The notes beneath the pieces were generated by a model that worked only from the letters and a program-made list of their open reading frames with translations, was not told the DNA's origin and did no database searches. Source: a virus. Taken from it: a stretch of 64,000 nucleotides of DNA. The stretch's first letter is position 1, and each line of letters opens with the position of its first letter. The position numbers and the translations under genes are program-made. This document shows, piece by piece, positions 6,821 to 52,449 of this stretch. The DNA lies in the IMG/VR virus record IMGVR_UViG_3300033273_000833, positions 124,001 through 188,000 of that record. One strand, written 5' to 3'.

Positions 6821-6827
6821 GTGTAAT
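6821..6827 (+). promoter_or_regulatory. Late-type promoter motif (gene 6835)
   Basis: GTGTAAT ends exactly 7 nt before ATG 6835, the spacing found before virion genes. It is one of only two copies at a gene start in the early block. Confidence 0.55.
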
Positions 6828-6834
6828 TATATAC

Positions 6835-7149
6835 ATGGATAATGATAATATAGAAAGGGATAATGACTTAGAATTTCGCAAACTTGAGCAAGAAATAAAT
6901 GAGCATAGATTTCACAGAAGAAATACTCCCATTCATATTACTCAAAATAAAATTGATTGCTTTAGAAAACAATTAGATTCTTTTCAAGAAAAACTTCACT
7001 ATTGCCATATCAGTAAAGAAAATGTTTTAGAATTTAATAAAATTTTATTCAGTTTACATAATCTCTACAAGGAAATATCTTATCAGAGAGACGATGGAAT
7101 GTATAAAAAATATGTAGAGAATCTTAATAAAAAAGATTCTAGTGATTAA
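6835..7149 (+). CDS. Hypothetical protein, 104 aa, probably late-expressed
   Basis: ATG 6835 is chosen because the GTGTAAT motif sits 7 nt upstream; the longer frame from TTG 6805 would run through the promoter. The product is charged and helical. The promoter type suggests expression with virion genes, so a minor virion or assembly role is possible but unproven. Confidence 0.6.
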   Translation: MDNDNIERDNDLEFRKLEQEINEHRFHRRNTPIHITQNKIDCFRKQLDSFQEKLHYCHISKENVLEFNKILFSLHNLYKEISYQRDDGMYKKYVENLNKKDSSD

Positions 7150-7423
7150 TATAATTTATATATTAGTATGTTTTTATGGGTTAATATTAACGCTAACTTA
7201 TATATGTGTTCAAATAACAATCAAACAAAAAGATACTATGGACAAAAAAATAATAATGGATGACTATGACGCAGGTTTTGCTGATGCTACAAAACTAATG
7301 GAAAAAAAATTAGATGAAATTCTCTCAAAATATCGAGACATCCTAAAAAAGTATGATTACATCGAAGAAGCAAGAGATGTTGAGTTGCTTGAAGAGGTCA
7401 AACAAAAACTTTTTGAAAAATAG
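7142..7423 (+). CDS. Membrane-anchored coiled-coil protein, 93 aa (GTG start)
   Basis: The GTG at 7142 gives an N-terminal hydrophobic helix (residues 3-25) followed by a charged, heptad-rich cytoplasmic region, an architecture like Rz-type spanins or small anchored coiled coils. An internal ATG at 7238 would remove the membrane segment. Coupling to the late-type gene upstream supports the longer form. Confidence 0.5.
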   Translation: MINIIYILVCFYGLILTLTYICVQITIKQKDTMDKKIIMDDYDAGFADATKLMEKKLDEILSKYRDILKKYDYIEEARDVELLEEVKQKLFEK

Positions 7424-7425
7424 TG

Positions 7426-7454
7426 TTGACAATTCGGTAGAGCTTCATCATAAT
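7426..7454 (+). promoter_or_regulatory. Sigma70-type leaderless promoter (gene 7462)
   Basis: TTGACA 7426-7431, 17-nt spacer, CATAAT 7449-7454; 7 nt to ATG 7462. Confidence 0.8.
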
Positions 7455-7461
7455 TATAGTT

Positions 7462-7683
7462 ATGAAGTATCAAGCCGAAGCAAATGCAGTTTATGAAATG
7501 TTATTTGATCTTGAGGATTTGGTTGATTTACATCAAAGTAGATTTTTACCAAATCAGTTGAGAGAGATAATTTCATTTAAAAATAAAATCAATCATCTAC
7601 TCTCTCGTAGGTTTCCGTTAAAAGCTAAAAGGGAAGTCAAGAATTTAGATAAGTACATCAATGAATGTTTATATGGACGCTGA
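7462..7683 (+). CDS. Hypothetical basic helical protein, 73 aa
   Basis: Helical, ending in a Lys/Arg-rich segment. First gene of the 7462-8396 operon; the next start lies inside its 3' end. Confidence 0.65.
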   Translation: MKYQAEANAVYEMLFDLEDLVDLHQSRFLPNQLREIISFKNKINHLLSRRFPLKAKREVKNLDKYINECLYGR

Positions 7684-7852
7684 AATTATAGTTAAAGAAA
7701 CAAAAATTAAAGGTACTATGGGTACTTTATGGAAGGTAGTCTCAAACCATGCAGAGTGTTTAAATCTACTGACTCGCAGAAAAACTCTTGACAGGGTTGA
7801 TCTTTTATGTTTGACTGATCTTGGTTTTAAAATTAAATACGAAAATAAATAA
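7673..7852 (+). CDS. Hypothetical protein, 59 aa
   Basis: Two in-frame starts are possible, ATG 7661 and ATG 7673; the shorter is given because it leaves a smaller overlap. The product is basic, with no recognisable motif. Its TAA overlaps the ATG of gene 7852. Confidence 0.55.
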   Translation: MDAEIIVKETKIKGTMGTLWKVVSNHAECLNLLTRRKTLDRVDLLCLTDLGFKIKYENK

Positions 7853-8112
7853 TGAAAATACAACTAGGGATAAGAGGTAGTTCAGATGCCATAAATCATA
7901 TTTTAATTAAAATAGATGATCTTATTTTAATGAATAAAGATAATTTATTTCTAGCAGGGAATGAAGGCAGAGATAAAACAGGAAAAAATTTAGTTCAATT
8001 ATTAAATACTTTATCTAAGGATCACGAAATATCTGTAAGTGAGAATGTTGCAGGACAGATAGAAAGCGAATTGGACATAGAAAACAATGAAATTAAAAAA
8101 TATGTAAATTAA
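7852..8112 (+). CDS. Hypothetical protein, 86 aa
   Basis: A helical protein with an N-terminal amphipathic region and acidic C-terminus. It starts in a TAATG overlap. Confidence 0.6.
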   Translation: MKIQLGIRGSSDAINHILIKIDDLILMNKDNLFLAGNEGRDKTGKNLVQLLNTLSKDHEISVSENVAGQIESELDIENNEIKKYVN

Positions 8113-8118
8113 ATAAAT

Positions 8119-8292
8119 ATGAAAAGATTAGAAGCAGTTAATAAAGAAAAAGTTTTATTGCAAATAATAGATCATTGCAAGGAACTTTTAAAAGATGAAA
8201 AATTTCTCGCAAACAACGATTGGAATACAGATACTCTGTTGCTTCATTCGGAGAAATTTCTTAAACTAGAATTACAACAATGGATCAAATAG
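8119..8292 (+). CDS. Hypothetical protein, 57 aa
   Basis: Charged helical protein with two Leu-rich stretches. It overlaps the membrane miniprotein gene at 8280 by 13 nt. Confidence 0.5.
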   Translation: MKRLEAVNKEKVLLQIIDHCKELLKDEKFLANNDWNTDTLLLHSEKFLKLELQQWIK

Positions 8293-8396: not shown

Positions 8397-8404
8397 TTTT
8401 GGTA

Positions 8405-8433: not shown

Positions 8434-8439
8434 TATACC

Positions 8440-8673: not shown

Positions 8674-8747
8674 TGCTTGATAAAAGATGCGAAATAATTG
8701 TTTAGTTATATAAATACAAAGTTTTTATTAGTAAATCATAATTATGC

Positions 8748-10084: not shown

Positions 10085-10091
10085 GTGTAAT
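10085..10091 (+). promoter_or_regulatory. Late-type promoter motif (gene 10099)
   Basis: GTGTAAT ends 7 nt before the GTG start at 10099. It sits in the early block but precedes a virion-type protein. Two copies of TATCGACATA (10032-10041 and 10072-10081) lie just upstream. Confidence 0.65.
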
Positions 10092-25702: not shown

Positions 25703-26006
25703 AGACAAGAGGATCGGGCAATGAATTAGGAGCCGCGAACCAATCGTTTGCGTCAATTACTTCGCCGTTTAGTACAGGCTCGAATTTGAATTGAGAAACA
25801 TTTGCATTGGCTATGCCGTTGACGCGTTCGCGTGTGGTCGGAGTATTCCAGCCCGCAAGTGACCAACGCACAAGCCCGTCGGCGTCACGCTTTACAATTG
25901 CGTTGCCATGTAGCCAAACGGTTTGCCCGTCTGTCTCGGTGTTTCCGACTTTTAAGGATGTGCCAGCATTGAAGGCGTTTCTTATTTGTTCTGTAACTTT
26001 TCTCAT
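25698..26006 (-). CDS. Conserved phage protein, 102 aa
   Basis: Reads like a family seen in several phages: an N-terminal helix (TEQIRNAFNAG), a strand pair around LKVGNTETDGQTVWLHG, then AGWNTPTTRERVNGI. Function unknown. Leaderless promoter on the minus strand fixes the start. Confidence 0.65.
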   Translation of the reverse strand: MRKVTEQIRNAFNAGTSLKVGNTETDGQTVWLHGNAIVKRDADGLVRWSLAGWNTPTTRERVNGIANANVSQFKFEPVLNGEVIDANDWFAAPNSLPDPLVF

Positions 26007-26013
26007 ATCTTTA

Positions 26014-26041
26014 TTATTAATGATTTTGTGTGATTATGCAA
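26014..26041 (-). promoter_or_regulatory. Sigma70-type leaderless promoter, minus strand (gene 26006)
   Basis: TTGCAT 26041-26036, 16-nt spacer, TAATAA 26019-26014; 7 nt to ATG 26006. Confidence 0.55.
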
Positions 26042-26243
26042 GCGGAAAAAAGGAAAAAAAGAGTTTTTGTGCAAGTAAATTTTGTGCCCGCTCTTCGGCT
26101 TCTTCTTCTTGCTGTTCTAGTTTCTCAAGATCAATTTCTGCCTGAATTACTTTTATTTGAGATTGGATGTGTCCAGCGTTTGCATCGAAGACATGATCTT
26201 TGATAAGTTGCTCTAGTTTACTGATTTCTTTTTTTATGTTCAT
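26034..26243 (-). CDS. Coiled-coil protein, 69 aa
   Basis: Glu/Lys/Gln-rich helical protein (LEQQEEEAEERAQNL) ending in a short hydrophobic tail. Its 3' end overlaps the promoter of gene 26006. Confidence 0.65.
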   Translation of the reverse strand: MNIKKEISKLEQLIKDHVFDANAGHIQSQIKVIQAEIDLEKLEQQEEEAEERAQNLLAQKLFFSFFPLA

Positions 26244-26249
26244 GATATA

Positions 26250-26278
26250 ACTATAAGAAAATTTTTATTTAATTGCAA
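26250..26278 (-). promoter_or_regulatory. Sigma70-type leaderless promoter, minus strand (gene 26243)
   Basis: TTGCAA 26278-26273, 17-nt spacer, TATAGT 26255-26250; 6 nt to ATG 26243. Confidence 0.7.
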
Positions 26279-26295
26279 GCTAAAAAGAAAGTTTT

Positions 26296-26487
26296 TTACG
26301 CAACCCACTCGACAAGCTCGAACTTGCGAGGCAAGCCAAACTTTGCGAGATCTTTGTTTAAGTCTTCAATGGATGCGTGGTGCTCGCATTTCATCATTAC
26401 ATTACGCTCGACGACTTCGCCGCTTTTGCGATCAATTATATTTACTTTGGCGATGAAGCCGTTTACTTGTTTATCATTTTTAATCAT
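26296..26487 (-). CDS. Hypothetical protein, 63 aa
   Basis: A small alpha/beta protein: two strands (FIAKVNIIDRKSGEVVERN), then a helix, then a final strand. Single-gene transcript. Confidence 0.65.
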   Translation of the reverse strand: MIKNDKQVNGFIAKVNIIDRKSGEVVERNVMMKCEHHASIEDLNKDLAKFGLPRKFELVEWVA

Positions 26488-26492
26488 ACCTT

Positions 26493-26521
26493 ACTATCGC
26501 ATAAAAAACGCAAAAAGTCAA
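26493..26521 (-). promoter_or_regulatory. Sigma70-type leaderless promoter, minus strand (gene 26487)
   Basis: TTGACT 26521-26516, 17-nt spacer, GATAGT 26498-26493; 5 nt to ATG 26487. Confidence 0.7.
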
Positions 26522-28535: not shown

Positions 28536-28542
28536 GTGTAAA
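28536..28542 (+). promoter_or_regulatory. Late-type promoter motif (gene 28550)
   Basis: GTGTAAA ends 7 nt before ATG 28550. First late-type motif of the virion region. Confidence 0.6.
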
Positions 28543-30626: not shown

Positions 30627-30633
30627 ATTACAC
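30627..30633 (-). promoter_or_regulatory. Late-type promoter motif, minus strand (gene 30611)
   Basis: GTGTAAT on the minus strand (30633-30627); 15 nt to ATG 30611, longer than the standard 7. Confidence 0.45.
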
Positions 30634-30635
30634 TA

Positions 30636-31709
30636 TTATTCCAAATCTATTGTGTCTCCATTAGCTAGCAATAAACAACTATCATCAACTAGCTTTATGC
30701 ATGCGGAGTTCACTATAACTGTTCGAGTAACTTCATCGGCGGCAGCGCCTTCTAAATCAGTAACGTTATATGTAACTTCATAAGTCGCAGCTACAGAAGT
30801 GTCAACTGGATTATTTGTAACAATTCTACTTGTAATATCTCCATCTGCCGTATCAAATGCTGTGGCACCTGCATCAGTATAAATGGAATCATAATCTACA
30901 TTAACTTCAGCATCACCCAATAAAGTAATAACAGGAGGATTATTAATAATATTTACAATTCTATTTCCAGATACAGTTAACCCTCCAGAGTCAGTAACTT
31001 CATAATCTACAGTATATAATCCATTAGATCCAGTATTTACATTATTTGTTGTAATTATTGCGCTAGTCAAATCCCCGTCTTCAGGATCACTCGCTGTAGC
31101 TCCCGCATCACTGTAGACTACTCCATGAAAATGGTCTACGAAAGCGCTTCCAAGAATTGTTATGGTTGGCGGCTGATTCCATTCCACATTAACCGTCACC
31201 TCTAAACTATCTCTTCCAGCATAATTATCAGCAAAAACATTAAACACTATTTCAATAGTATCTCCAGCACTATAACCTAAATCACCTAAATTAATAGTAC
31301 CTTGCAATAATCCTGTATTAGAATTAAATGTAAGACCAGAAGGATAACTATTAGCAATATATAAAAATGGATGATTAATATCACCAGTCATATTATCAGC
31401 TACAATTTGATAAGAAAAATTAAATTCTCTACTATTAGTTTCAATATTAATAATTGAATCAGATGTTATAACAGGAAGTTCTGATTTAACTATTCCCCTA
31501 AATTCAGAAAACCGATAGGTTTTAGTGGTGCTCCCTTCAGGTGCTAGTAGCCCTACAGGAATAGCCTGACCATAATCATCAATCAAAACCTCATTCGGCA
31601 TCTTATATGGCGCGCTCCATCCAGCAATACTGGATGTACTAACTTTTTTAGAATTATTGTCTAAAAAACCACTAATTTCAGAAAACTTTATTTCCCCTTC
31701 TTCGAACAT
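30636..31709 (-). CDS. Tail protein with DUF5011-type Ig-like domains, 357 aa
   Basis: N-terminal module with two FSE motifs (KFSEI, RFSEF) flanking DDYGQAIP, as in gene 51048. Then a cadherin/He_PIG-like segment (SYPSGLTFNSNTGLLQG) and two DUF5011-like Ig domains (PPxITxLG...YxDAGATAxD...GD). Such domains act as spacers or adhesins. C-terminal end contains LLLANGDTIDLE, similar to the end of the giant FN3 protein. Likely surface-exposed virion protein. Confidence 0.65.
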   Translation of the reverse strand: MFEEGEIKFSEISGFLDNNSKKVSTSSIAGWSAPYKMPNEVLIDDYGQAIPVGLLAPEGSTTKTYRFSEFRGIVKSELPVITSDSIINIETNSREFNFSYQIVADNMTGDINHPFLYIANSYPSGLTFNSNTGLLQGTINLGDLGYSAGDTIEIVFNVFADNYAGRDSLEVTVNVEWNQPPTITILGSAFVDHFHGVVYSDAGATASDPEDGDLTSAIITTNNVNTGSNGLYTVDYEVTDSGGLTVSGNRIVNIINNPPVITLLGDAEVNVDYDSIYTDAGATAFDTADGDITSRIVTNNPVDTSVAATYEVTYNVTDLEGAAADEVTRTVIVNSACIKLVDDSCLLLANGDTIDLE

Positions 31710-31876
31710 GGGAATTTTTTGTTTATTATTTTTATTAATGGTTCGGTATTGCCAGATTTTATGTAGTCTGCGGGATATCCTCCTTTTAAATCTTTATTAG
31801 GCTCTCCAAGCCATATTGCTGCATCGCGAGGACCAAGGTGATCACATAATCGTTGGAAAATTTGAAATTTATTCAT
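31688..31876 (-). CDS. Stand-alone MbcA/ParS/Xre antitoxin C-terminal-like domain, 62 aa
   Basis: Residues about 18-45 (DAAIWLGEPNKDLKGGYPAD, then YIKSGNTEPLI) match the AxxWLxxPNxxLxGxxPxxxxxSG pattern of the DUF2384 domain, which in antitoxins binds the RES toxin or partner subunits. No toxin is adjacent and no helix-turn-helix is attached. It is read from a late-type promoter and overlaps the next tail gene by 22 nt. Confidence 0.5.
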   Translation of the reverse strand: MNKFQIFQRLCDHLGPRDAAIWLGEPNKDLKGGYPADYIKSGNTEPLIKIINKKFPCSKKGK

Positions 31877-31884: not shown

Positions 31885-31900
31885 ATTACACTAGTGTAAA
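31885..31900. promoter_or_regulatory. Palindromic bidirectional late promoter
   Basis: TTACACTAGTGTAA (31886-31899) is a perfect palindrome carrying GTGTAA on both strands. Minus-strand copy is 8 nt from ATG 31876; plus-strand copy GTGTAAA is 15 nt from ATG 31916. Confidence 0.6.
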
Positions 31901-32646: not shown

Positions 32647-32653
32647 GTGTATA
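32647..32653 (+). promoter_or_regulatory. Late-type promoter motif variant (gene 32663)
   Basis: GTGTATA, 9 nt before ATG 32663. Confidence 0.4.
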
Positions 32654-32662: not shown

Positions 32663-33229
32663 ATGGAGCTAGTCGCAGCAATAATAGGAGCAATATCTAC
32701 GCTATTTGGGGTATATTTAACCCATAAGCTAAGGGTATCTAAGGATCCTTTACCTAAAGATATAGATAGAAATGATAACATTTATACTGCTTTATCGTAT
32801 CTTATTGAAGAAACTGAAGCTGATAGATGCTATGTATATGAATTTCATAATGGGGATTATTATTACAGTGGAAATTCTCAACAAAAATTCAGCAATACAT
32901 ATGAAATAGTCGAAGAAGGTATTAGTTCTGAGTCAGAAAGAGAGCAAAATTTAAGAGTATCAAGTTATAACTTTTTTATTAAACAATTAATTAATGAAGG
33001 TGGAGTTTGTTACGCAAATACAGAAAAAATACCCGACCCTTTGTTTAAGGAAAGAATGCATAATAAAGGTATAGTTAGCATTTCTTGCGTACCAATTAAG
33101 TTGTTGAATGGGAAAATAATAGGTATTTTGGGGGTAGATTACGTAAAGCATAAAAATAAATGCGATGAAACTATGTTTCAATTACTGAGAAATCAAGCTA
33201 GAATTATTAGCGGTTACTTAGGCGAATAG
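32663..33229 (+). CDS. Membrane-anchored GAF-domain-like protein, 188 aa
   Basis: An N-terminal hydrophobic helix (VAAIIGAISTLFGVYLTH) is followed by a GAF-like fold: TEADRCYVYEFHNGDYYY, a central variable part, and a C-terminal SISCVPIKLLNGKIIGILG motif. Related small anchored GAF proteins occur in other phages; the ligand is unknown. It probably sits at the host inner membrane facing the cytoplasm. Confidence 0.65.
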   Translation: MELVAAIIGAISTLFGVYLTHKLRVSKDPLPKDIDRNDNIYTALSYLIEETEADRCYVYEFHNGDYYYSGNSQQKFSNTYEIVEEGISSESEREQNLRVSSYNFFIKQLINEGGVCYANTEKIPDPLFKERMHNKGIVSISCVPIKLLNGKIIGILGVDYVKHKNKCDETMFQLLRNQARIISGYLGE

Positions 33230-33262
33230 TTGAATTTTAATTAAATAATTATATAATTAACT

Positions 33263-33613
33263 ATGAATATAGTTTATTGTACTAGTTGTGGCCACAAAAT
33301 CGAATATACATCTCCTTCGCCAAAATTTTGTCCTTCATGTGGTAGTAGTATGGGTAACTCAAGCGCGTCTGTAGCTAGCAGCGCCTCAGTCGAAAATACT
33401 ATTGTTGAAGAAAAGATACCATCTATATCTAAATTAGAATATGAGATAGATGCAAGCAATGGAAATCGAGTAATCTCAGGAAGCGATATACAAAATATAT
33501 CAGAATCTCCTAAAAGAAAAATTTCCAATAGCCAAGGAGGCAATGAAGATCTTATCAAAGAAGGTATGCAGTTATGTAGGCAAAGTAAAAAGCAGACCGA
33601 TATTGATGGGTAG
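33263..33613 (+). CDS. Zinc-ribbon protein, 116 aa
   Basis: Two CxxC pairs (CTSCGH at 6-11 and CPSCGS at about 23-28) form a zinc ribbon, followed by a Ser-rich linker and a charged tail. Zinc ribbons next to sigma factors suggest a possible transcription role, but only position supports that. Confidence 0.65.
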   Translation: MNIVYCTSCGHKIEYTSPSPKFCPSCGSSMGNSSASVASSASVENTIVEEKIPSISKLEYEIDASNGNRVISGSDIQNISESPKRKISNSQGGNEDLIKEGMQLCRQSKKQTDIDG

Positions 33614-34322
33614 AAAAAAGAAACTTAAATACGAAGATTGCGTAGATGTAATTGATAACGAACTACGTAAAAGGAAGCACAAGTGGAGACTGCATGCGCT
33701 TGCATGGATGGATTATGACGATGTTCAGCAAATTATAAGAGCTCATATTTATAAAAAATGGGATCAATGGGACCAAAAGAGGGGACTGGCTCCTTGGATA
33801 AATAAAATTATATCCAATCAAATTAAAAATATATTCAGGAATTACTATACTAATTTTGCAAGACCATGCCTGAACTGTCCTTTTGCGCAGTCATCTGCCA
33901 GTGAACATGAAGAGGGTCATACAGGATTATGCGGATTTACCCCAAGCGGCGTACAATGTTCAGAGTGCCCGCTATACTCAAAGTGGGAAAAAACTAAAAA
34001 AAGCGCTCATGACATAAAAATGCCCTTAGCTCTAGAGCATCATCCCCAAGAAGTTTATAATATATCAGAGCAGTTAACAGATATTTCCGACGCTGAAAAA
34101 AAGTTGCATACTCTTATGCGCACTAAATTGTCTGAAAAGCATTATATTATTTATGATATGATTTACATTCAACATATGCCAGAGGATAAAGTTGCCGAAA
34201 AAATGGGATATAAGAGTAACGAAAAAGGAAGAAAAGCTGGGTACAAACAATTAAAAAATTTAAAAAAGATTTTTGTGGAAAAAGCGAAAGAAATTATTGA
34301 CAAGAAAGATATTATAATATGA
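33606..34322 (+). CDS. Phage sigma-70-like RNA polymerase sigma factor with zinc-binding insert
   Basis: ATG 33606 overlaps the upstream stop (ATGGGTAG); an earlier in-frame ATG exists at 33543. Residues about 35-80 (MDYDDVQQIIRAHIYKKW...PWINKIISNQIKNIF) resemble sigma region 2. A Cys cluster follows (CLNCPF ... LCGF ... CSECPL). The C-terminal EKHYIIYDMIYIQHMPEDKVAEKM part matches a region 4 helix-turn-helix. It is the natural candidate to read the GTGTAAT promoters of the virion genes. Confidence 0.75.
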   Translation: MGRKKKLKYEDCVDVIDNELRKRKHKWRLHALAWMDYDDVQQIIRAHIYKKWDQWDQKRGLAPWINKIISNQIKNIFRNYYTNFARPCLNCPFAQSSASEHEEGHTGLCGFTPSGVQCSECPLYSKWEKTKKSAHDIKMPLALEHHPQEVYNISEQLTDISDAEKKLHTLMRTKLSEKHYIIYDMIYIQHMPEDKVAEKMGYKSNEKGRKAGYKQLKNLKKIFVEKAKEIIDKKDIII

Positions 34323-36859: not shown

Positions 36860-38724
36860 GCTGGGAAACAGGAAATCAACCACATAATCCATCCAAAGAG
36901 GATATTAATAAACTACTTTTAGATAAAGGTTTTATTGAAGAAAAAGAAGCGAAGATATTATTATATCAATTTTTACGCGAAAACATTACATTCACAACTA
37001 ATTTATTATCGGGGGTTGATTTATTCCCATTTCAACATATGGCAATCAAAGGTATGTTCGAAACTGATTATTTCCTGGGTATTTGGAGTCGAGGTATGTC
37101 CAAATCTTTTACCACGGGAATTTATGCTTTTCTGGACGCCATACTTAATCAGGGCGTAGAAATAGGAATTCTTGCAGCTTCATTTAGACAGTCCAAACAA
37201 ATATTTAAAAAAATTGAAGATATCGCTAACAAGCCTCAGGCAAAAATGCTCGCAGGATGTATAACCAAAAAAAGTAAAAGTAACGATGAATGGTTGATGG
37301 AGATAGGGAGAAGTAGGATTAGGGCTCTACCTTTAGGTGATGGTTCTAAGCTTCGTGGTTTCAGGTTTCATAGAATTATTATTGACGAAATGTTATTGAT
37401 GCCCGAAAGAGTATATAATGAGGTTATTGTACCGTTCCTCTCTGTCGTAGAAAATCCCACTCAGAGGGAAGAGCTCTATAATCTCGAAACAAACCTGATA
37501 GAAAAAGGGCAAATGACTGAAGAAGAGCGGTATAGATGGCCTAATAATAAATTAATAATGCTGTCATCTGCTAGTTATAAATTCGAATATTTATATAAAT
37601 TATATTCTAATTTCGAAGATTTGATATTAAATCATGTTGATCATAAAGATGGTTCTAACGCTAGAAGATCTATTATGCATTTTAGTTATGATTGTGCTCC
37701 TAAGCAATTGTATGATGTGAATTTGATTAATCAATCTAAGGCTACAATGAGTCAATCTCAGTTCGATAGAGAGTTTAATGCTATATTTACAGATGATAGC
37801 AGTGGATATTTCAAGACTTCTAGAATGGCGGAATGTACAATAAAGGATGGAGAAGGGCAGTGCGTGGAAATAGCGGGCGAGCCTGACGCTAAATATATTT
37901 TAGCTATAGACCCCAGCTGGGCAGAGAGCGAAAGTTCTGATGACTTTGCAATGCATGTACTTAAATTAAATGATGAAAAGCGAAATGCTACTGTAGTTCA
38001 TAGCTATGCAATGTCTGGGACTCGACTGCAGGATCATATGTTTTATTTTAAATACCTTATAGAAAAATTTAATATTGTTAGTATTGTAGCTGACTATATG
38101 GGAGGTGTGCAATTTATTAACGCCGTTAATGAAAGCTCTATGTTTAAAAAGGATAATATTAATTTTAAACAGATAGATGTTAACTTTGATGACTTGAATG
38201 ACTATCAAAATGTACTAAAGGGCGTTAAACAACAATACAATCAGCAAGATAGAAGAATTTGCTTTCTGAGAAAACCTAGTTCTGATTGGATTCGTAGAGC
38301 TAATGAATCATTGCAGGCTAACTTCGATCATAAAAGAATATGGTTTGCCTCTAGAGCAATTGATGAAGATTATGCCATGCAGAGAAGAAAAAAGATTCCT
38401 ATAACTAAGTTAAAGTTCTTAAAAAATGAAGAAAAAAATCAATCCCCTCAATCGAAAATGATTGATTTGATTGAGCATCAATATGATTTAATGAATTTAA
38501 CTAAATCTGAGTGTGCTCTTATCCAGATTAAAACATCCCCTCAGGGAACTCAAACATTTGATTTGCCCGATAACTTAAAAAGACAGACTGGTCCAGAGAA
38601 GACTAGAAAAGACTCCTATTCTGCACTTGTGCTGGGAAATTGGATGGTTTCTCTGTACTACGAATTCATGCATGTCGATTTAGCTCCAAAATATTTAGAC
38701 TTTACGCCAATGTTTATAAAATAA
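36856..38724 (+). CDS. terL: Terminase large subunit
   Basis: Walker A-like WSRGMSKS (77-84), Walker B IIIDE (174-178), and the RNase H-like nuclease aspartates Asp352 (LAIDPSW) and Asp413 (VADYMGG) with a further acidic region near the C-terminus. At 622 residues it is full length. It pumps DNA into the procapsid using ATP and cuts the concatemer. Starts in an ATGA overlap with the nuclease gene. Confidence 0.9.
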   Translation: MSWETGNQPHNPSKEDINKLLLDKGFIEEKEAKILLYQFLRENITFTTNLLSGVDLFPFQHMAIKGMFETDYFLGIWSRGMSKSFTTGIYAFLDAILNQGVEIGILAASFRQSKQIFKKIEDIANKPQAKMLAGCITKKSKSNDEWLMEIGRSRIRALPLGDGSKLRGFRFHRIIIDEMLLMPERVYNEVIVPFLSVVENPTQREELYNLETNLIEKGQMTEEERYRWPNNKLIMLSSASYKFEYLYKLYSNFEDLILNHVDHKDGSNARRSIMHFSYDCAPKQLYDVNLINQSKATMSQSQFDREFNAIFTDDSSGYFKTSRMAECTIKDGEGQCVEIAGEPDAKYILAIDPSWAESESSDDFAMHVLKLNDEKRNATVVHSYAMSGTRLQDHMFYFKYLIEKFNIVSIVADYMGGVQFINAVNESSMFKKDNINFKQIDVNFDDLNDYQNVLKGVKQQYNQQDRRICFLRKPSSDWIRRANESLQANFDHKRIWFASRAIDEDYAMQRRKKIPITKLKFLKNEEKNQSPQSKMIDLIEHQYDLMNLTKSECALIQIKTSPQGTQTFDLPDNLKRQTGPEKTRKDSYSALVLGNWMVSLYYEFMHVDLAPKYLDFTPMFIK

Positions 38725-38775
38725 AAGTTAAAAGTAACTTTAAAAGTAACTTTTTTTACTTATTATAATATATAG

Positions 38776-38782
38776 GTGTAAT
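38776..38782 (+). promoter_or_regulatory. Late-type promoter motif (portal gene)
   Basis: GTGTAAT, 9 nt before ATG 38792. Confidence 0.55.
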
Positions 38783-38791: not shown

Positions 38792-40756
38792 ATGGCTAAA
38801 AGAAAATATAATAAGAAATCTGAATACTGGAAAAAGTTTGATAAAAGTCAACCTTTAGACAATGTTATGATCTCAAACTCTGCGCAGTGGTCGCCAGAGT
38901 TATCTGGAGAAGGTTTTTATGAATCGATAGCAAGTCAATATACTCGATCAGGGAAAGTTGACACTCAGACAAGAAAGAATCGAGCAGCATTAGGCACTAA
39001 AGCTTCGAAATACGAAAACATTCATAAGGGTTTATTGCCTTATCACTTTGGTGCAGATGGCATACATATCAGAGAGGCTATTGAGTTATGTCAAAAGGCG
39101 TATTGCAATATATCGATATTCAGAAATGCTATCGACATTATGGCTGAATTTGCAAACGCTGAAATTTTACTAGAAGGTGGTAGCGAGGTGGCAAGAAACT
39201 TTATACAGAAATGGTTTGATAGAGTCAATTTATGGTTTTTAAAAGATCAATTTTTTAGAGAATATTATAGATCTGGTAATGTTTTTTTATATACGTTAGA
39301 GGGAAAAATAAATTTAAATGATTTAAGGAAATCTTATCGTTCAGAAATTTTAGGATTAAAGGGTAAGATTCCATTGAGATACATTATATTAAATCCATAT
39401 GATATTGTTAGGCGTCACAGCTCTTCTTTTTCCGATTCTCTTTATGAGAAAATATTGAGTGAATATGAAATTGAAAGACTAAAGACTCCAAAAAATGATC
39501 TAGATAAACAAATATTTGAATCGTTATCTCCAGATGCAAAAAAGAAGGTTACTGATAATGCTTATTTGAGGGATGGGGTAAAAGTCCCGCTTGATCCTAA
39601 ATATCTTAGATATTGCTTTTATAAAAAGCAAGACTACGAGCCGTTTGCAATTCCTTTTGGTTTCCCTGTTTTAGATGACATTAATTTTAAGCTTGAGTTA
39701 AAAAAAATTGACCAAGCAATTACGAGAACCATCGAAAATGTAATTTTACTTATCACCATGGGCGCTGAACCAGACAAGGGAGGGGTGAATCCAGCAAACA
39801 TGGTCGCAATGCAAAAACTATTCCAGAACGAGAGCGTTGGTAGAGTTTTAGTAAGCGATTATACTACTAAAGCTCAGTTTGTTATTCCTGAAATTAATAA
39901 AGTTTTAGGCGCCGAAAAGTACGCAATAGTCAATCAAGATATTAAAGAAGGATTACAAAACATAATCGTTGGTCAAGAAAAATTTTCAAATACAGCTGTT
40001 AAGGCAGAGATATTTTTAGAGAGATTAAAAGAATCTCGTAATGCATTTTTAAAGCAGTTCTTGCAGCCAGAAATTAATCAAATTTGCAAAAACCTGGGAA
40101 TGAAGTCAATCCCAAAAGCGAAATTTGAAGAAGTAAATGTTAAAGACGAAACTCAACTACAAAGAGTGACTACTAGGCTTATGGAAATCGGTATACTTAC
40201 TCCGCAACAAGGTGTTGATGTCATAAAAACTGGAGTGTTTCCAGAATCGAAAGAAATTGCTCCTGCTCAAGAAAAATTTGTAGAAGAAAGAGAGATGGGG
40301 TACTACAACCCATTAGTTGGAGGAGTGCCAATGATTGAAGGAGAAGGTGCGTCTGAAACCCCTAAATCTGCTGGTAGACCAACAGGCACAAGTGGGATAC
40401 CAAAGGAGTCTACGTCTAAAGAAACATATGGCAGAACAGATATACAGAATGTAGTTTACGCAACAGAACAATTTTCTGAAGAAGCGAAAAAGATATTAAA
40501 AACGCACAAAAAAATTAAAAGATTTAACAAGTCTCATCAAAAACTTTTAAGCGAATTATGTTCTAAAATTATAGTATCTTCAGAAACTGATAATTGGCAT
40601 AAAGATTTTGAGGCTATCGTAAAAGATTCGGAAAAAATCATGGATCTAGACACCCTGCCTGGAATTAATGAAATATGTGCCGAGCACCAAATCGAAGAAT
40701 ATCCAGCTGCACTTCTATATCATAGCAAAAAAATTAAAAACGAAAAATCTGTGTAA
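38792..40756 (+). CDS. Portal protein
   Basis: A 654-residue protein directly after TerL with the portal-like order: an N-terminal clip of charged residues, FRNAIDIMAEFANAEI-type helices near 110, a long central helical stem (QAITRTIENVILL) and a disordered C-terminal part rich in Gly/Ser. It forms the dodecameric channel at the head vertex. Its stop codon is inside the late motif of the next gene. Confidence 0.8.
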   Translation: MAKRKYNKKSEYWKKFDKSQPLDNVMISNSAQWSPELSGEGFYESIASQYTRSGKVDTQTRKNRAALGTKASKYENIHKGLLPYHFGADGIHIREAIELCQKAYCNISIFRNAIDIMAEFANAEILLEGGSEVARNFIQKWFDRVNLWFLKDQFFREYYRSGNVFLYTLEGKINLNDLRKSYRSEILGLKGKIPLRYIILNPYDIVRRHSSSFSDSLYEKILSEYEIERLKTPKNDLDKQIFESLSPDAKKKVTDNAYLRDGVKVPLDPKYLRYCFYKKQDYEPFAIPFGFPVLDDINFKLELKKIDQAITRTIENVILLITMGAEPDKGGVNPANMVAMQKLFQNESVGRVLVSDYTTKAQFVIPEINKVLGAEKYAIVNQDIKEGLQNIIVGQEKFSNTAVKAEIFLERLKESRNAFLKQFLQPEINQICKNLGMKSIPKAKFEEVNVKDETQLQRVTTRLMEIGILTPQQGVDVIKTGVFPESKEIAPAQEKFVEEREMGYYNPLVGGVPMIEGEGASETPKSAGRPTGTSGIPKESTSKETYGRTDIQNVVYATEQFSEEAKKILKTHKKIKRFNKSHQKLLSELCSKIIVSSETDNWHKDFEAIVKDSEKIMDLDTLPGINEICAEHQIEEYPAALLYHSKKIKNEKSV

Positions 40757-40757
40757 T
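40751..40757 (+). promoter_or_regulatory. Late-type promoter motif (protease/scaffold gene)
   Basis: GTGTAAT overlaps the portal stop TAA (40754-40756) and ends 7 nt before ATG 40765, which selects that start over ATG 40756. Confidence 0.65.
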
Positions 40758-44212: not shown

Positions 44213-44241
44213 CTTGAAAAAAGTGTATATTCCTATTATAA
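44213..44241 (+). promoter_or_regulatory. Composite promoter (sigma70-like plus late motif) for gene 44263
   Basis: TTGAAA, 17-nt spacer, TATAAT just before 44242, with the late variant GTGTATA (44223-44229) inside the spacer. The leader has a purine-rich GGAAAGGT stretch before ATG 44263. Confidence 0.5.
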
Positions 44242-45165: not shown

Positions 45166-45172
45166 GTGTAAT
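45166..45172 (+). promoter_or_regulatory. Late-type promoter motif (gene 45180)
   Basis: GTGTAAT begins immediately after the upstream stop codon and ends 7 nt before GTG 45180. Confidence 0.65.
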
Positions 45173-46643: not shown

Positions 46644-47611
46644 CGAACAGATTCCTTGATCGTAACAGTGCCCTCCATGAACCCATTTTGGCTGATTGAA
46701 ATTTCTTGAGTATCTATTTGGCCTGCAATTGTTAAAGTTCTAGCGATTGCCTGCCCAGGTTGATTCTCCGCACCAATTGCTTTTAATAAAATGCTGATTG
46801 TTGCATTTCTTTTGTCGTGACCTTTAAAATTTATGACTTTACCAATATCTTCCCCTTGCACTGTGACTTCGCGGTTAATTGCTCCAAGATTTACTTCCAC
46901 AGGATGTCTTTTTCCAACTACATAAATAGGAAGTCTTTCATATGATTCCGTCCAACTAATGGATACTGGATGCTCTACTCCGATAGTGGCTCTATTATAA
47001 CCGACTAATTCAGTTGTTACATGATTTTGGGTGTTTAAAGGAGTTATGGATATATTTGGTTCAGGCGGAGGAACTACAGGGGTAAATGTATCTCCCTCTA
47101 GTTCGTCTGGGTTGGATGTTCCTATATTTCTAAAATCATCATTTACGCTAGCAGTTGAACTGCCATCGCGATCTGAAGTCATTTTGTAAATAGAAAAGTC
47201 CGCGCTAATATTGGCGGGTTTGTATGGCTCCAGCGTTAAATTAAAAGAATTTAAATATGTTTGGCCAAAGTTGAATCCTGCAAGTCTTCCATATAATTCA
47301 TCAGCTTCACCAGTTTTACTAATAATTTGATCGCTGTTTCCATTTAAAAAAAAGTCTGTATTTAAGCTTGCGGTTAAAGGTGCGTCTGGGAAGTATCTAT
47401 GAAGTTGTTGTTTGCCCAGAGTTCGCATTGGGGGGACTGAGGCAGAAATTTGCAATCCAGCACTTGTTGAATAAATGTAGTCATTTGAGCTTGCGTTGAC
47501 TGGGTAGTCTGGGTAATCAGCAGCATTAGCTCTTGAGTGATAACTTGTTCCAACCGCTCCTATATAAAGCGGTGTTTCTGTATATCTGTAGAAACTTCTT
47601 TGGTTGCTCAT
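46640..47611 (-). CDS. Tail tube-like/virion protein, 323 aa
   Basis: The C-terminal half contains LPIYVVGKRHPVEV, closely matching EPVYVVGRDRPVEV in the N-terminal part of the giant FN3 protein (gene 52452), so the two share a domain. The fold is beta-rich with a Pro-rich linker. A tail tube or tail-terminator-like role is the best guess. Confidence 0.55.
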   Translation of the reverse strand: MSNQRSFYRYTETPLYIGAVGTSYHSRANAADYPDYPVNASSNDYIYSTSAGLQISASVPPMRTLGKQQLHRYFPDAPLTASLNTDFFLNGNSDQIISKTGEADELYGRLAGFNFGQTYLNSFNLTLEPYKPANISADFSIYKMTSDRDGSSTASVNDDFRNIGTSNPDELEGDTFTPVVPPPEPNISITPLNTQNHVTTELVGYNRATIGVEHPVSISWTESYERLPIYVVGKRHPVEVNLGAINREVTVQGEDIGKVINFKGHDKRNATISILLKAIGAENQPGQAIARTLTIAGQIDTQEISISQNGFMEGTVTIKESVR

Positions 47612-47618: not shown

Positions 47619-47625
47619 ATTACAC
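47619..47625 (-). promoter_or_regulatory. Late-type promoter motif, minus strand (gene 47611)
   Basis: GTGTAAT (47625-47619), 7 nt before ATG 47611. Confidence 0.65.
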
Positions 47626-48161: not shown

Positions 48162-49798
48162 ATTTTTTCCAACTCTTTAATTCTTTTTTCTTGATCTTTT
48201 ATACACTCTATTAGTAATGGTATTATACTATTATATTTTACACTTTTAAAGCCATTTTCTTTATCTTTGACGGCTTCTGGCAAAACAAGCTCTACTTCTT
48301 GAGCAAGCACACCGTAATCTTTACCAGAATATTTTGGCTGCATTTCTTCTTTCCAGTCAAAAGATATTCCATTTATTTGTTCTATTTTATTTATCGGACT
48401 ATCTATTGTTTGGATGTTTTCCTTAAGTCTTTGGTCAGAGGCGCTATAGTATGCAACAACATCATTATAACAGAGCAGGTCTCCACTGGCGTCAATTTCC
48501 ACGCTCTTGCTTCCTGATGTATAGAAACATATACTATCCAAATCTGGGCTTTCTTCTGTTGTTATATAAGTATCATTGTCTGCATCAGATATACCTGTTA
48601 ATAAGTCTATGGTTGCGAAATCTCCCGTTTGACCCGTAGTGACGAAAACGCCAGTTTCTCCAGTTGTCACAAAATCCCCTGTTAAGCCAGTAGTGACAAA
48701 GTCTCCTGTTTGAGCTGTAGTAACGAAAATGCCAGTTTCTCCAGTGGTCACAAAATCCCCTGTTAAGCCAGTAGTGATAAAGTCTCCTGTTTGAGCTGTA
48801 GTAACGAAAATGCCAGTTTCTCCAGTGGTCACAAAATCCCCTGTCAAGCCAGTAGTAACGAAGTCTCCCGTTTGACCCGTAGTGACAAACACGCCAGTTT
48901 CTCCAGTAGTTACAAAATCTCCTGTCAGGTCAGTAGTAACGAAGTCTCCCGTTTGACTCGTAGTGACAAATACACCAGTTTCACTATCAGTTACAAAATG
49001 ACCTGTCTCAACTCCAGTTAATACAGTCAAACCACTAATTGTCAGCTCTTGACTGAAGTTTCCTATTTGCCCTGTGATAGTATCGAAAACTCCACTAGTT
49101 CCTTTGAATTTATACCCACTAATGTCACCCGTAACAGAAACATCAGTTACAGACTCTACAAATGTTTCTCCCGTAACATATAGATTTCCTCCAATAGCTA
49201 AATCTCCAGTAACTCTAAAATCATGAAAAAATCCACTGACGCCACTCAATTGCTCTTCTGAATATATTAAATTAGAGCTTCCGTTGAATGATGAACCGCT
49301 TTTGTATTGAATTGAGTAATTAGGTCCACTAACGGTTGCTGTTGAGTTAGAAAATGGAGCCCATGCATTATTCGTGTAGCCTTCAAATTGGCTTAGTTCT
49401 GTATTGTATCTTATTAAACCGTCTGCAGCGAACGGTCTTTGGGCAGATGATCCCGCAGGCAACTTAATGCCGTCAGATGTAAAAACTCCTAGTCCGCAGT
49501 TTGTTGAGACGGGAGCATTTAATGGGTTTATATTGATGCCTGATTTATTGAAATTTACAGAAGTTATTCCGCTACAACTTATGGACGCAGTGTCGTCTCC
49601 AGTATGAACACTAAATTTTGTGTCGCCGTCTTGATCTTCTATTTCTATATACTGCTTTAATTTGCTTATAGATATTTTAGAAGTTCTTGGAACATTGGCG
49701 GTTTCAGCTCCTGATTCAGTTATGACTAAAAAATCAGTTGATTCATTTGTGAAATCATCTGAAAACGTAGGTAAACCTCTTATTTTAACATTAGCCAT
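48143..49798 (-). CDS. Tail fibre with 9-residue repeats and S74 intramolecular chaperone, 551 aa
   Basis: Adaptor-type N-terminus (KIRGLPTFSDDFTNESTDFLV), a middle with about 15 repeats of the form xTGxFVTTx, and a C-terminal Peptidase_S74/endosialidase chaperone (SDQRLKENIQTID ... YGVLAQEVELVLPE ... YNSIIPLLIECIKDQEK). The chaperone normally trims itself off after trimerisation. The repeats probably form a beta-helical shaft. Confidence 0.85.
   Translation of the reverse strand: MANVKIRGLPTFSDDFTNESTDFLVITESGAETANVPRTSKISISKLKQYIEIEDQDGDTKFSVHTGDDTASISCSGITSVNFNKSGININPLNAPVSTNCGLGVFTSDGIKLPAGSSAQRPFAADGLIRYNTELSQFEGYTNNAWAPFSNSTATVSGPNYSIQYKSGSSFNGSSNLIYSEEQLSGVSGFFHDFRVTGDLAIGGNLYVTGETFVESVTDVSVTGDISGYKFKGTSGVFDTITGQIGNFSQELTISGLTVLTGVETGHFVTDSETGVFVTTSQTGDFVTTDLTGDFVTTGETGVFVTTGQTGDFVTTGLTGDFVTTGETGIFVTTAQTGDFITTGLTGDFVTTGETGIFVTTAQTGDFVTTGLTGDFVTTGETGVFVTTGQTGDFATIDLLTGISDADNDTYITTEESPDLDSICFYTSGSKSVEIDASGDLLCYNDVVAYYSASDQRLKENIQTIDSPINKIEQINGISFDWKEEMQPKYSGKDYGVLAQEVELVLPEAVKDKENGFKSVKYNSIIPLLIECIKDQEKRIKELEKICQSKA
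48611..49012 (-). repeat. Coding tandem repeats, 27-nt unit in an 81-nt higher-order unit
   Basis: The encoded repeats follow the order ETGxFVTTx, QTGDFVTTx, LTGDFVTTx, so three 9-residue units make an 81-nt super-repeat present about four to five times, with near-identical DNA in the middle. Confidence 0.8.
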
Positions 49799-49809: not shown

Positions 49810-49816
49810 ATTACAC
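49810..49816 (-). promoter_or_regulatory. Late-type promoter motif, minus strand (gene 49798)
   Basis: GTGTAAT (49816-49810), 11 nt before ATG 49798. Confidence 0.5.
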
Positions 49817-50044
49817 TTTTACAATTGATCCATTTTTATAATAAAGTTTTTCTTTATCGTCACTTTTATTTCGTATAATATTTTCTACATTAATATATTC
49901 AGAGTCATCTACTACTACAACTTTTATTTCGTCTTTATTGTGTGATTTATCTATATATTGTATAGCATCTAATCTTGGCTTTTTTGATTCAGCTGGAAAT
50001 GCAAAAATAATTTGATCGTTTTTGTTTATAAATAAATGTATCAC
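49811..50044 (-). CDS. Small tail-region protein, 77 aa
   Basis: Lys/Asp-rich, alpha/beta protein coupled by ATGA overlap to the glycine-rich fibre gene; its C-terminal codons contain the late motif of the next gene. A small fibre adaptor or chaperone is possible. Confidence 0.55.
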   Translation of the reverse strand: MIHLFINKNDQIIFAFPAESKKPRLDAIQYIDKSHNKDEIKVVVVDDSEYINVENIIRNKSDDKEKLYYKNGSIVKV

Positions 50045-51051
50045 CCTATTACTCCTTTTAGTGTTGCAGATCCAAAAGTCCCGTTGTATAAACTGCTTGA
50101 ATTGATTGTGAAACCGTTTTTTCTTAACAAATATCCAGCAGCTCCTCCACTTGCGGCGTTACCAAATCCTGCCTTCGCCAGATTTCCTCCAGGCATTGGA
50201 GCATACATATCTTGCGAAAAAGTGGATCCTGGAGAGCCTCCAGTCGTGCTTGTTCCAGCGCTTCCATTTGCGTTGCCTAAGCCTCCTTGCCCAGGAAGGA
50301 TACCAGCTCCCCCGCCTCCACCGCTGTAAAGAGATCCTGAACCTCCTCCACCTCCTCCAAAGATGCTTCCACCATTATTTTCTATATAAATTCCATATTG
50401 CAAGCTAATTGCATCCCCACCATCTTTTCCATTTACGTCTGTGTTATAATTTAGCGCATTTCCACCATCCCCGCCTGCAGCTGAAATTATACCTTCGTTG
50501 ATAACTTTTACATAAGAGTTATTCTCCCAGCCAGTTCCCGTTTGCAGTGCTGGTACGCTACTATCTTTAGAATAAATTATTCCTTTATTTATAAAAATTA
50601 AAGCCTCTGCCTCTGTAGTATAACCTCTTGTCTGATATAAAAGCGATCTTAAATTAACATTTGCTAGCGAGGTTTCATTGACAATATGTATGGCTACAAT
50701 TGATGTAGATCCAGTTTCATCGTCGCTCACTAAATTATCTCCGTCGTCTGTTGTTAGCCAGCCGTCATAAGATTGCTCTAAAAGAGTGGGATAATCTCCT
50801 TCTCCATCTGCAATAATATAGTACCCAGGATTTGCGTCCATAAATTCAAATTCAGAAAATTTAAAATCTGAACCTAATGTAAATGGGCTTAAGGTTTCGC
50901 CAGCATCTCCTATTCTTGGAAAAGATGAATTAAAGGCGAAATTAGAAACATCTCTTGTTGATATAGAGCTTGTTAAGGGAATTCCTCCCGCCTCTCCTCT
51001 TATCCTGCTTAGTGATATCGGGCCTGTAGTCTTTGAGTTTATGCGGGTCAT
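50041..51051 (-). CDS. Glycine-rich tail adhesin, 336 aa
   Basis: N-terminal module with GPISLSRIRGEAGG and FKFSEFEF motifs (virion anchor shared with gene 51048), a middle beta-rich domain, and a C-terminal Gly-rich region with several GGGGG stretches. Gly-rich tips of this kind (as in T2-like adhesins) bind host receptors. A likely host-range determinant. Confidence 0.65.
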   Translation of the reverse strand: MTRINSKTTGPISLSRIRGEAGGIPLTSSISTRDVSNFAFNSSFPRIGDAGETLSPFTLGSDFKFSEFEFMDANPGYYIIADGEGDYPTLLEQSYDGWLTTDDGDNLVSDDETGSTSIVAIHIVNETSLANVNLRSLLYQTRGYTTEAEALIFINKGIIYSKDSSVPALQTGTGWENNSYVKVINEGIISAAGGDGGNALNYNTDVNGKDGGDAISLQYGIYIENNGGSIFGGGGGGSGSLYSGGGGGAGILPGQGGLGNANGSAGTSTTGGSPGSTFSQDMYAPMPGGNLAKAGFGNAASGGAAGYLLRKNGFTINSSSLYNGTFGSATLKGVIG

Positions 51052-51656
51052 AATAGCTGGGTATAAGAGCCATAGTTTTGTGGACTAACAATGCTTCCAT
51101 TGTTGATTAAAATGATTTCAGAACTTGCGGGCCAGCTAGATTGCTGCAAATGTATATTATTAATATTTCCGTTATTTGTGAACTCAAAGAAAATTCTTGA
51201 ATATGGATAACCAAAATTTCTGCAAAATTCTGCAAAAAGATAAATGTCTCCAGTGTCGCTGTTGTTTTCGGCTTTATGTTTTATTATAGTTTCATCCCCA
51301 ACTTTATCATCGGTCCTTAATGCTCTTCCATTGTCGTCTGTGATTAAAAAAGCGCCAGTATCTTTTATTCTGCTAGAATGAGCTTGCGCTCCGTCTTTAA
51401 ATTCAGAAATCAAAAAATTATTATCATCATAACCATCAAATTGATAAAATTCAGAAAATTTAATGTTTGAAGATCTGCCTGGTATAATTTGGCCATATTC
51501 GTCTACAAAATTTGGGGCAGATACGTCTCCTGTTCTGTATGGATCCGAAGATTTGTCTCTTACAAATTGATCTTGTTTTGATATGTTGCCGTATCCGTAT
51601 GAACTCTCGCCTATAATTTCACTCAATGAAATTGGGCCTGATCCTGGCAGTGTCAT
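51048..51656 (-). CDS. Tail fibre-like protein, 202 aa
   Basis: N-terminal GPISLSEIIGE followed by DEYGQIIPGRSSNIKFSEFY, the same anchor as in genes 50041 and 30636. The remaining 120 residues are a beta domain. Overlaps neighbours by 4 nt on both sides. Confidence 0.6.
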   Translation of the reverse strand: MTLPGSGPISLSEIIGESSYGYGNISKQDQFVRDKSSDPYRTGDVSAPNFVDEYGQIIPGRSSNIKFSEFYQFDGYDDNNFLISEFKDGAQAHSSRIKDTGAFLITDDNGRALRTDDKVGDETIIKHKAENNSDTGDIYLFAEFCRNFGYPYSRIFFEFTNNGNINNIHLQQSSWPASSEIILINNGSIVSPQNYGSYTQLL

Positions 51657-52435
51657 TTTATTTTACTCTTTAATTCGTCAATTTGTTTTTGTTGATCTTT
51701 AATAGCTTCAATCAGTAGTCCAATTATGTTTTGGTAGGCAACAGCTTTTTTGCCTTCAGGTAAATCTTTAACTACTTCTGGGATAACTTGTTCAACTTCT
51801 TGCGCAACTAGACCCATGTGAATTTTTTCTTTGTCTTCAGAATCTTTTCTCGTATACAAACGCCCATTGAGTCTTTTAACTTTTTGGATAGCATGAGGGA
51901 TTGGTCTTATGTTATCTTTTACAGAAACGTCAGAGAAAGCAACAATATCATTTGACGCATAAATAGATGTAGTCCCTACTACATTATGTACTTCAAGGGC
52001 TCCCAGAATGTTATTTCCGATTGAGGAAGATTCAATATCTGCTGATCCGTTTTGACCTATAGAGACATGATTGTTAAAACCAACATTTTCATCAAATACT
52101 TTTGCTGCCGTAATATCTTGGGCTGTATTTACCGTAACAAAATTATTACCTAGATTTGTAAGCGCAGATGTGTTTGCGTCTATGTCTGAAATCAGATTCG
52201 TAAATATATTACCAGTTCCTCCTACTGTGATATCATTAGTTGATTCCAGGTCGGTTGTAGTTACTGACAGAGGAGAAATATTAACATCTCCATTTTGAAT
52301 CATGGCTCCTTCTAAATTTGAAAAGGTAGTTTGTTTTGTTTCATCCGCGCTTGAGTCTACAACCACAAACAAGTCTGCGGTAGCTATTTCGTCGTAAGCT
52401 AAAGAATTTAGATCTGAAATTTTACTTTCTGCCAT
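51653..52435 (-). CDS. Tail fibre with S74 intramolecular chaperone, 260 aa
   Basis: N-terminal adaptor (SKISDLNSLAYDEIATADLFVV), a short shaft, and a complete C-terminal S74 chaperone (SVKDNIRPIPHAIQKVKRLNG ... MGLVAQEVEQVIPE ... YQNIIGLLIEAIKDQQK). Two S74 fibres in one operon suggest distinct receptor-binding trimers. (Motif at the start of the chaperone: DVSVKDNIRPI.). Confidence 0.8.
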   Translation of the reverse strand: MAESKISDLNSLAYDEIATADLFVVVDSSADETKQTTFSNLEGAMIQNGDVNISPLSVTTTDLESTNDITVGGTGNIFTNLISDIDANTSALTNLGNNFVTVNTAQDITAAKVFDENVGFNNHVSIGQNGSADIESSSIGNNILGALEVHNVVGTTSIYASNDIVAFSDVSVKDNIRPIPHAIQKVKRLNGRLYTRKDSEDKEKIHMGLVAQEVEQVIPEVVKDLPEGKKAVAYQNIIGLLIEAIKDQQKQIDELKSKIK

Positions 52436-52442
52436 ATATTAT

Positions 52443-52449
52443 ATTACAC
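52443..52449 (-). promoter_or_regulatory. Late-type promoter motif, minus strand (gene 52435)
   Basis: GTGTAAT (52449-52443), 7 nt before ATG 52435. Confidence 0.65.

What the first reader, a model, noticed from the sequence alone, without database searches (positions are those of the whole stretch)
6821..52449. Second promoter class: GTGTAAT placed exactly 7 nt before virion gene starts, probably read by the phage sigma factor
GTGTAA(T/A) ends 7 nt before the start of genes 6835, 10099, 28550, 40765, 45180, 47611 and 52435, and 8-15 nt before 30611, 31876, 31916, 38792, 49798 (variants at 32663 and 44263). The motif occurs almost only before late-type genes and on the correct strand. A sigma-like protein with a zinc-binding insert is encoded at 33606-34322 among them. 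The spacing mirrors the leaderless early class, so late mRNAs should also be leaderless. This is a distinctive phage late-promoter system.
Basis: partly seen in the sequence, partly recalled or inferred. Interest (0 to 1): 0.85.

Follow-up and report, generated by a model that had tools for sequence, protein, structure and literature searches.

The report
Leaderless late promoters of marine phages
This uncultured marine phage and its large family mark late genes with a short DNA signal (GTGTA) a fixed distance before the start codon, most likely read by a phage sigma factor that redirects the host's RNA polymerase and starts messages right at, or close to, the gene's first codon.

Summary
GTGTAAT/A is not over-abundant in the window, but 10 of 11 GTGTAAT copies lie just before a gene start on the right strand. 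Over the 203-kb record, 34 of 72 GTGTAA copies lie 6-17 nt before a start (background 1.9%), the best of all hexamers; three related records agree. The core is GTGTA, nine nt (modal) before the start, with no -35 element. It is held at particular genes across a large marine phage family: 47 of 47 distinct portal-gene promoters have it, and none of 185 upstream regions of five neighbouring genes. Genes with it differ from those with host-type TTGACA-N17-TATAAT promoters, and a gene's class persists in distant orthologues. It also precedes all four tmRNA genes found, so it is a transcription signal. The 33606-34322 protein is a sigma factor whose operon has a conserved host-type promoter, giving a host-to-phage cascade. 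A portal-specific AAAGT/ACTTT array was also found. New variant of a known kind.

The parts
6821..6827 (+). class II promoter GTGTAAT, 7 nt before ATG 6835 (105 aa)
10085..10091 (+). class II promoter GTGTAAT, 7 nt before GTG 10099 (269 aa, phrog_8198); conserved in G001
28536..28542 (+). class II promoter GTGTAAA, 7 nt before ATG 28550; class II in G001 and G005 too
30627..30633 (-). class II promoter GTGTAAT, 15 nt before ATG at 30611
31885..31891 (-). class II promoter GTGTAAT, 8 nt before ATG at 31876 (62 aa); abuts the divergent site at 31894
31894..31900 (+). class II promoter GTGTAAA, 15 nt before ATG 31916 (PhoH); GTGTA in 19 of 32 distinct relatives
32647..32653 (+). class II promoter GTGTATA, 9 nt before ATG 32663; GTGTA in 26 of 36 distinct relatives
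33230..33257 (+). host-type promoter TTGAAT-N16-TATAAT, 5 nt before ATG 33263, driving the Zn-ribbon/sigma operon; conserved in the family (z = 10.8)
33263..33613 (+). zinc-ribbon protein, 116 aa, first gene of the sigma operon; role unknown
33606..34322 (+). phage sigma factor, 238 aa: sigma region 2, Cys-rich (putative Zn) insert, region-4-like HTH; proposed reader of GTGTA
38723..38760 (.). AAAGT/ACTTT array just upstream of the portal promoter; one per genome where found, conserved through the family
38776..38782 (+). class II promoter GTGTAAT, 9 nt before ATG 38792 (probable portal); GTGTA in 47 of 47 distinct relatives
38792..40756 (+). probable portal protein, 654 aa
   Evidence: phrog_16240 portal in one of 11 members, E 8e-4; beside terL
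40751..40757 (+). class II promoter GTGTAAT containing the portal gene's stop codon, 7 nt before ATG 40765; GTGTA in 26 of 33 distinct relatives
44223..44229 (+). weak class II candidate GTGTATA, 33 nt before 44263 with SD-like sequence between
45166..45172 (+). class II promoter GTGTAAT, 7 nt before GTG 45180 (minor tail protein)
47619..47625 (-). class II promoter GTGTAAT, 7 nt before ATG at 47611
49810..49816 (-). class II promoter GTGTAAT, 11 nt before ATG at 49798 (tail/baseplate protein)
52443..52449 (-). class II promoter GTGTAAT, 7 nt before ATG at 52435 (tail fibre)

Best explanation
GTGTA(A/T/C) is the -10-like element of a second, phage-specific promoter class. Host RNA polymerase with host sigma-70 first reads the class I promoters (TTGACA-N17-TATAAT), whose start point falls on the start codon. 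These serve replication genes and, in a weaker form, the Zn-ribbon/sigma operon at 33263-34322. The phage sigma (33606-34322) then binds host core polymerase and recognises GTGTA without a fixed -35 element, starting about 9 nt downstream, i.e. on the start codon when spacing is modal, giving leaderless or near-leaderless late mRNAs (tail, portal, PhoH, RNR, protease) and the phage tmRNA. Shown by sequence: the motif, its position, its gene-specific conservation, the absence of a -35 signal, the two nearly exclusive classes, the sigma homology, and a conserved host-type promoter on the sigma operon.
For: GTGTAA is the best start-proximal hexamer in four records. De novo positional search finds two strong signals, TTGAC in the -35 place and GTGTA in the -10 place, in G000-G003. 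No -35 information around 69 sites. Orthologous promoters: portal 47/47, 32663 26/36, 40765 26/33, PhoH 19/32, against sigma 0/44, 34319 0/40, 35930 0/48, terL 0/26, 42387 0/27. Class II persists in distant orthologues (Fisher p 1e-8, 2e-7, 4e-4). Class I genes are replication-type, class II structural or late-type. GTGTA precedes all four tmRNA genes found, 8-9 nt before the mature 5' end in two. All 39 sigma-family members match Sigma70_r2 and six match region 4; Foldseek's best PDB matches are nearly all sigma factors, mostly ECF. The sigma operon has a host-type promoter, z = 10.8. The sigma's region 2 is 40/54 identical between G000 and G002, as expected if the motif is invariant, against 14/46 for the second sigma-like protein. 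No match to PF00623 (multisubunit RNAP).
Against: A second sigma-like protein exists and no third promoter class was found for it. The proposed sigma has a well-conserved region-4-like domain although class II shows no general -35 element. Pfam scores are near the cut-off and the AF2 model is modest (pLDDT 73, pTM 0.38), so homology is sound but recognition is not modelled. One locus (L265) has PhoH and portal with GTGTA but no sigma in the stretch held; the stretch may simply not include it. No RNA data.
Confidence: 0.73

Rival explanations
1. GTGTA is the late promoter element, but it is read by the second phage sigma-like protein (G000:25896-26510, 204 aa, next to SSB); the 33606 protein does something else.
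For: The protein has a region-2 match (phrog_351) and lies in an operon whose first gene has a class I promoter, a sensible place for a late sigma. No other non-host promoter class is left for it.
Against: It diverges fast (31% overall, 14/46 in region 2 between G000 and G002) while GTGTA does not change. Relatives were found only in G001, G002 and one further contig, whereas the 33606 family was found in 95 places, most of the fetched loci with start-proximal GTGTA.
Confidence: 0.13
2. GTGTA is read by host sigma-70 reshaped by a phage activator (as with T4 MotA/AsiA at middle promoters), TGTAAT serving as a poor -10.
For: TGTAAT differs from TATAAT at one base, and some relatives have GTGTATAAT.
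Against: G replaces the key A of the -10, C is tolerated at position 6 (GTGTACTA), no activator box is shared by class II sites, and a sigma factor is present.
Confidence: 0.08
3. GTGTA is a translation-initiation signal in mRNA, not a promoter.
For: It lies where a Shine-Dalgarno sequence would.
Against: It precedes tmRNA genes, is absent from operon-internal genes including the capsid-like gene, is almost exclusive with class I promoters, occurs in divergent pairs and just after terminator-like sequences.
Confidence: 0.03
4. Chance or stop-codon-driven enrichment.
For: The raw number of sites is no more than expected.
Against: Position, strand, orthologue conservation and NNNTAA controls.
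Confidence: 0.01

Closest known systems
phiEco32 gp36 sigma and its middle/late promoters (PMC8948821)
   Same: Phage sigma on host polymerase; single-element promoter tAATGTAtA with start point 6-8 bp downstream and no -35. Both motifs contain TGTA.
   Different: gp36 is reported to lack region 4; ours has a region-4-like domain and a Cys-rich insert. The motif differs, our sites sit on start codons, and no sequence homologue was found in INPHARED phages.
Phage T4 late system: gp55, gp33 and the gp45 clamp (PMC2988020)
   Same: Late promoters with only a -10 element; small divergent sigma-70 protein; large phage encoding a clamp loader and rIIA/rIIB.
   Different: The motif is not the T4 late box as I recall it (TATAAATA); region-2-like and region-4-like domains are in one protein; no gp33 or clamp dependence shown.
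Phage 7-11 gp47 late promoters (PMC8948821)
   Same: Phage sigma-directed late class following a host sigma-70 early class.
   Different: Bipartite GTAAtg-16-aCTA with an upstream element.
AR9 / phiKZ jumbo-phage promoters (PMC5312081)
   Same: Two promoter classes with short motifs near genes.
   Different: Read by phage multisubunit RNAPs; AR9 leaders are 26-491 nt. Our phage gave no match to PF00623.

Membership tests
sigma-70 family (ECF-like, two-domain) | region 2 homology | tested here: met
   39 of 39 members match PF04542, best E 1.1e-6; over the cut-off by translated search in five of five records
sigma-70 family (ECF-like, two-domain) | region 4 HTH | tested here: inconclusive
   six of 39 members match PF08281, best E 1e-4; helices predicted at pLDDT 78-90
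sigma-70 family (ECF-like, two-domain) | fold similar to solved sigma factors | tested here: inconclusive
   best PDB matches are ECF sigmas with probability up to 1.0, but E 8e-3 and low TM
sigma-70 family (ECF-like, two-domain) | binds core RNAP and directs initiation | not testable with these tools
   needs biochemistry
phiEco32 gp36-type late system | single promoter element, no -35 | tested here: met
   flat upstream information in 69 sites
phiEco32 gp36-type late system | sequence homologue of gp36 or gp47 | tested here: not met
   no tblastn match in INPHARED at E 1e-5, only unrelated matches at E 6
phiEco32 gp36-type late system | start point 6-9 bp after the element | not testable with these tools
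   consistent: tmRNA 5' end 8-9 nt after GTGTA in two genomes
T4 gp55 late system | gp55 homology | tested here: inconclusive
   PHROG matches were phrog_1740 and phrog_3512, named only sigma factor; no direct comparison with gp55 was made
T4 gp55 late system | TATAAATA motif | tested here: not met
   class II motif is GTGTA; the T4 motif is from memory
T4 gp55 late system | clamp dependence with gp33 | not tested
   a clamp loader is present; gp33 was not sought

The most novel reading that the evidence does not exclude
A large, uncultured marine phage family makes most of its primary transcripts, early and late, leaderless by fixing both promoter classes a set distance from the start codon. 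It runs the late programme with a sigma fused to a Cys-rich (putative zinc) insert, and the portal gene alone carries an extra AAAGT/ACTTT operator array that tunes portal dose through a dedicated DNA-binding protein.
Probability: 0.35. Interest if true: 0.75.

Novelty: new variant of a known kind. Interest (0 to 1): 0.6.

Why it matters
It supplies a readable code for early and late genes in a widespread phage family without a close relative among deposited phages: 95 places encode the sigma by one query and more than 580 encode the portal. It provides a new sigma/promoter pair with a five-base core for recombinant tests, and a case where promoter position makes leaderless translation the rule. 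It also gives a way to find class II genes of unknown function in marine viral contigs.

Tried and rejected
Literature search for GTGTAAT: no relevant paper. Profile search of the sigma in the PDB: only a weak ECF match, E 0.32. AF2 of the capsid-like protein 43035: pLDDT 44, not used. PF00940 search was uninformative because no control genome rang. Third promoter class for the second sigma: none found. Using G003 to decide between the two sigmas: its contig lacks the whole SSB segment. Idea that the AAAGT/ACTTT array is a terL-linked packaging site: weakened because it moved with the portal, about 28-34 kb from terL, in G002 and G005. Absence of SD in both classes is partly trivial, since the promoter element occupies that place.
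Full report
What was checked. The window is bases 124001-188000 of a 203,067-base IMG/VR virus record. The number of GTGTAAT copies is not unusual (11 against 8.0 +/- 2.9 expected), so the signal must be positional, and it is. In the whole record 34 of 72 GTGTAA lie 6-17 nt before a same-strand gene start, where 1.9% of positions lie; no other hexamer does as well. Other hexamers ending in TAA, a control for upstream stop codons, give 2.1% pooled, and the reverse complement gives 3/72.

Two promoter classes. A de novo positional hexamer search in the record and three relatives (G001, G002, G003) returns the same two signals: TTGACA/CTTGAC ending 29 nt before the start, and GTGTAA ending 8 nt before. 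TTGACA-N17-TATAAT-N6-start adds up to 29, so class I is an ordinary sigma-70 promoter placed so that transcription would begin on the start codon. Around 69 class II sites there is no conserved -35 element; only GTGTA and a weak A/T preference remain. In the most diverged sigma clade the motif is often GTGTACTA or GTGTATAA, so the invariant core is GTGTA. Genes are almost always in one class or the other, and class membership survives in orthologues at 30-70% protein identity. Class II genes have larger upstream gaps than unclassed genes, several sites follow terminator-like hairpins, and several are divergent pairs.

Gene-by-gene conservation. Across related loci with near-identical upstream regions removed, GTGTA is found before the probable portal gene in 47 of 47, 32663 in 26 of 36, 40765 in 26 of 33 and PhoH in 19 of 32. 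It is found before the sigma gene in 0 of 44, 34319 in 0 of 40, 35930 in 0 of 48, terL in 0 of 26, 42387 in 0 of 27 and the capsid-like 43035 in 0 of 15. terL and the capsid gene are therefore presumably read through from upstream promoters.

Transcription, not translation. ARAGORN finds a tmRNA in G000, G001, G002 and G003. All four are preceded by GTGTA: 8-9 nt before the mature 5' end in G002 and G003, 27 nt in G000 and G001. A non-coding RNA needs no translation signal, and the 8-9 nt distance equals the modal distance to start codons. This is an independent hint that the start point falls at the start codon, although tmRNA ends are normally processed, so it is not proof.

What class II drives. 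In the window: tail fibre, baseplate and minor tail proteins, portal, PhoH and unknowns. Elsewhere: ribonucleotide reductase large subunit, ATP-dependent protease, a kinase-like protein, nucleotide-sugar epimerase, UDP-glucose dehydrogenase, a minor tail protein and a virion structural protein. Class I includes a DnaB-like helicase, a DNA polymerase match, clamp loader and endonuclease. 'Late' is thus inferred from gene type; 'virion' alone is too narrow.

The sigma factor. The gene is 33606-34322; the longer frame from 33543 overlaps the previous gene, and relatives begin at MGRPRKLRYED. The family has 95 relatives in IMG/VR by one query and none in INPHARED. All 39 aligned members match Sigma-70 region 2 and six match region 4; Foldseek ranks ECF sigmas first with modest scores. 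Between the two domains is an insert with invariant cysteines (C88, C91, C109, C121), probably zinc-binding. The gene has no GTGTA of its own. The operon's first gene (Zn-ribbon protein, 33263) has TTGAAT-N16-TATAAT-N5-ATG, and this host-type arrangement is conserved across 43 distinct relatives (z = 10.8 against shuffles). This gives a simple cascade: host sigma makes the phage sigma, which turns on class II.

Main doubt. A second sigma-like protein lies at record 25896-26510 (-), beside SSB and dUTPase. It too could read GTGTA. Against this, its recognition domain has diverged (14 of 46 identical between G000 and G002) while GTGTA has not, whereas the 33606 protein is 40 of 54 identical there. 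The held sequence does not decide it.

Portal array. The 50 or so bases before the portal's GTGTA hold a conserved array of AAAGT and ACTTT, often centred on AAAGTTAACTTT: 155 ACTTT where shuffles give 10.6, and 89 AAAGT where shuffles give 6.7, in 46 sequences. It occurs once in each of G000, G001, G002 and G005, always before the portal (no portal orthologue and no array were found on G003's contig), and it moved with the portal where the portal lies far from terL. Other class II promoters mostly lack it. A regulator binding site is the most likely reading; a packaging role is not excluded.

Comparison. What it works like: phiEco32 gp36 (single element tAATGTAtA, start 6-8 bp downstream; PMC8948821) and T4 gp55 (-10 only; PMC2988020). 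Membership in either is not shown: no sequence homologue of gp36/gp47 was found, and gp55 was not compared directly. I found no earlier report of this motif, within an open-access library only.

Noticed in passing
window 38723-38760 and the same place in 46 distinct relatives: Conserved AAAGT/ACTTT array (palindromic core AAAGTTAACTTT) directly upstream of the portal promoter, once per genome where found, moving with the portal gene. Binding protein unknown.
   Followed up: partly
G000:25896-26510 (-), L009:5896-6510; orthologues in G001 and G002: Second sigma-70-like protein of the same phage, fast-evolving, in an operon with dUTPase and SSB; no promoter class of its own found.
   Followed up: partly
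L011:6699-7062, L097:9003-9400, L114:9776-10138, L118:600-957: Phage-encoded tmRNA in all four large records, with GTGTA upstream; predicted tags of three end in LALAA, the G001 prediction differs.
   Followed up: partly
L127 (PBIO01000004.1): A 57% identical sigma relative lies on a contig binned in a Halobacteriovorax MAG; possible but weak host hint.
   Followed up: no
window 33263-33613: Zn-ribbon protein conserved as first gene of the sigma operon; possible partner of the sigma.
   Followed up: no
window 31688-31876 (-): 62-aa class II protein with a weak match to the Xre/MbcA/ParS antitoxin C-terminal domain (E 0.0013, below cut-off).
   Followed up: no
window 40751-40757: The promoter heptamer contains the stop codon (TAA) of the upstream portal gene.
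   Followed up: no
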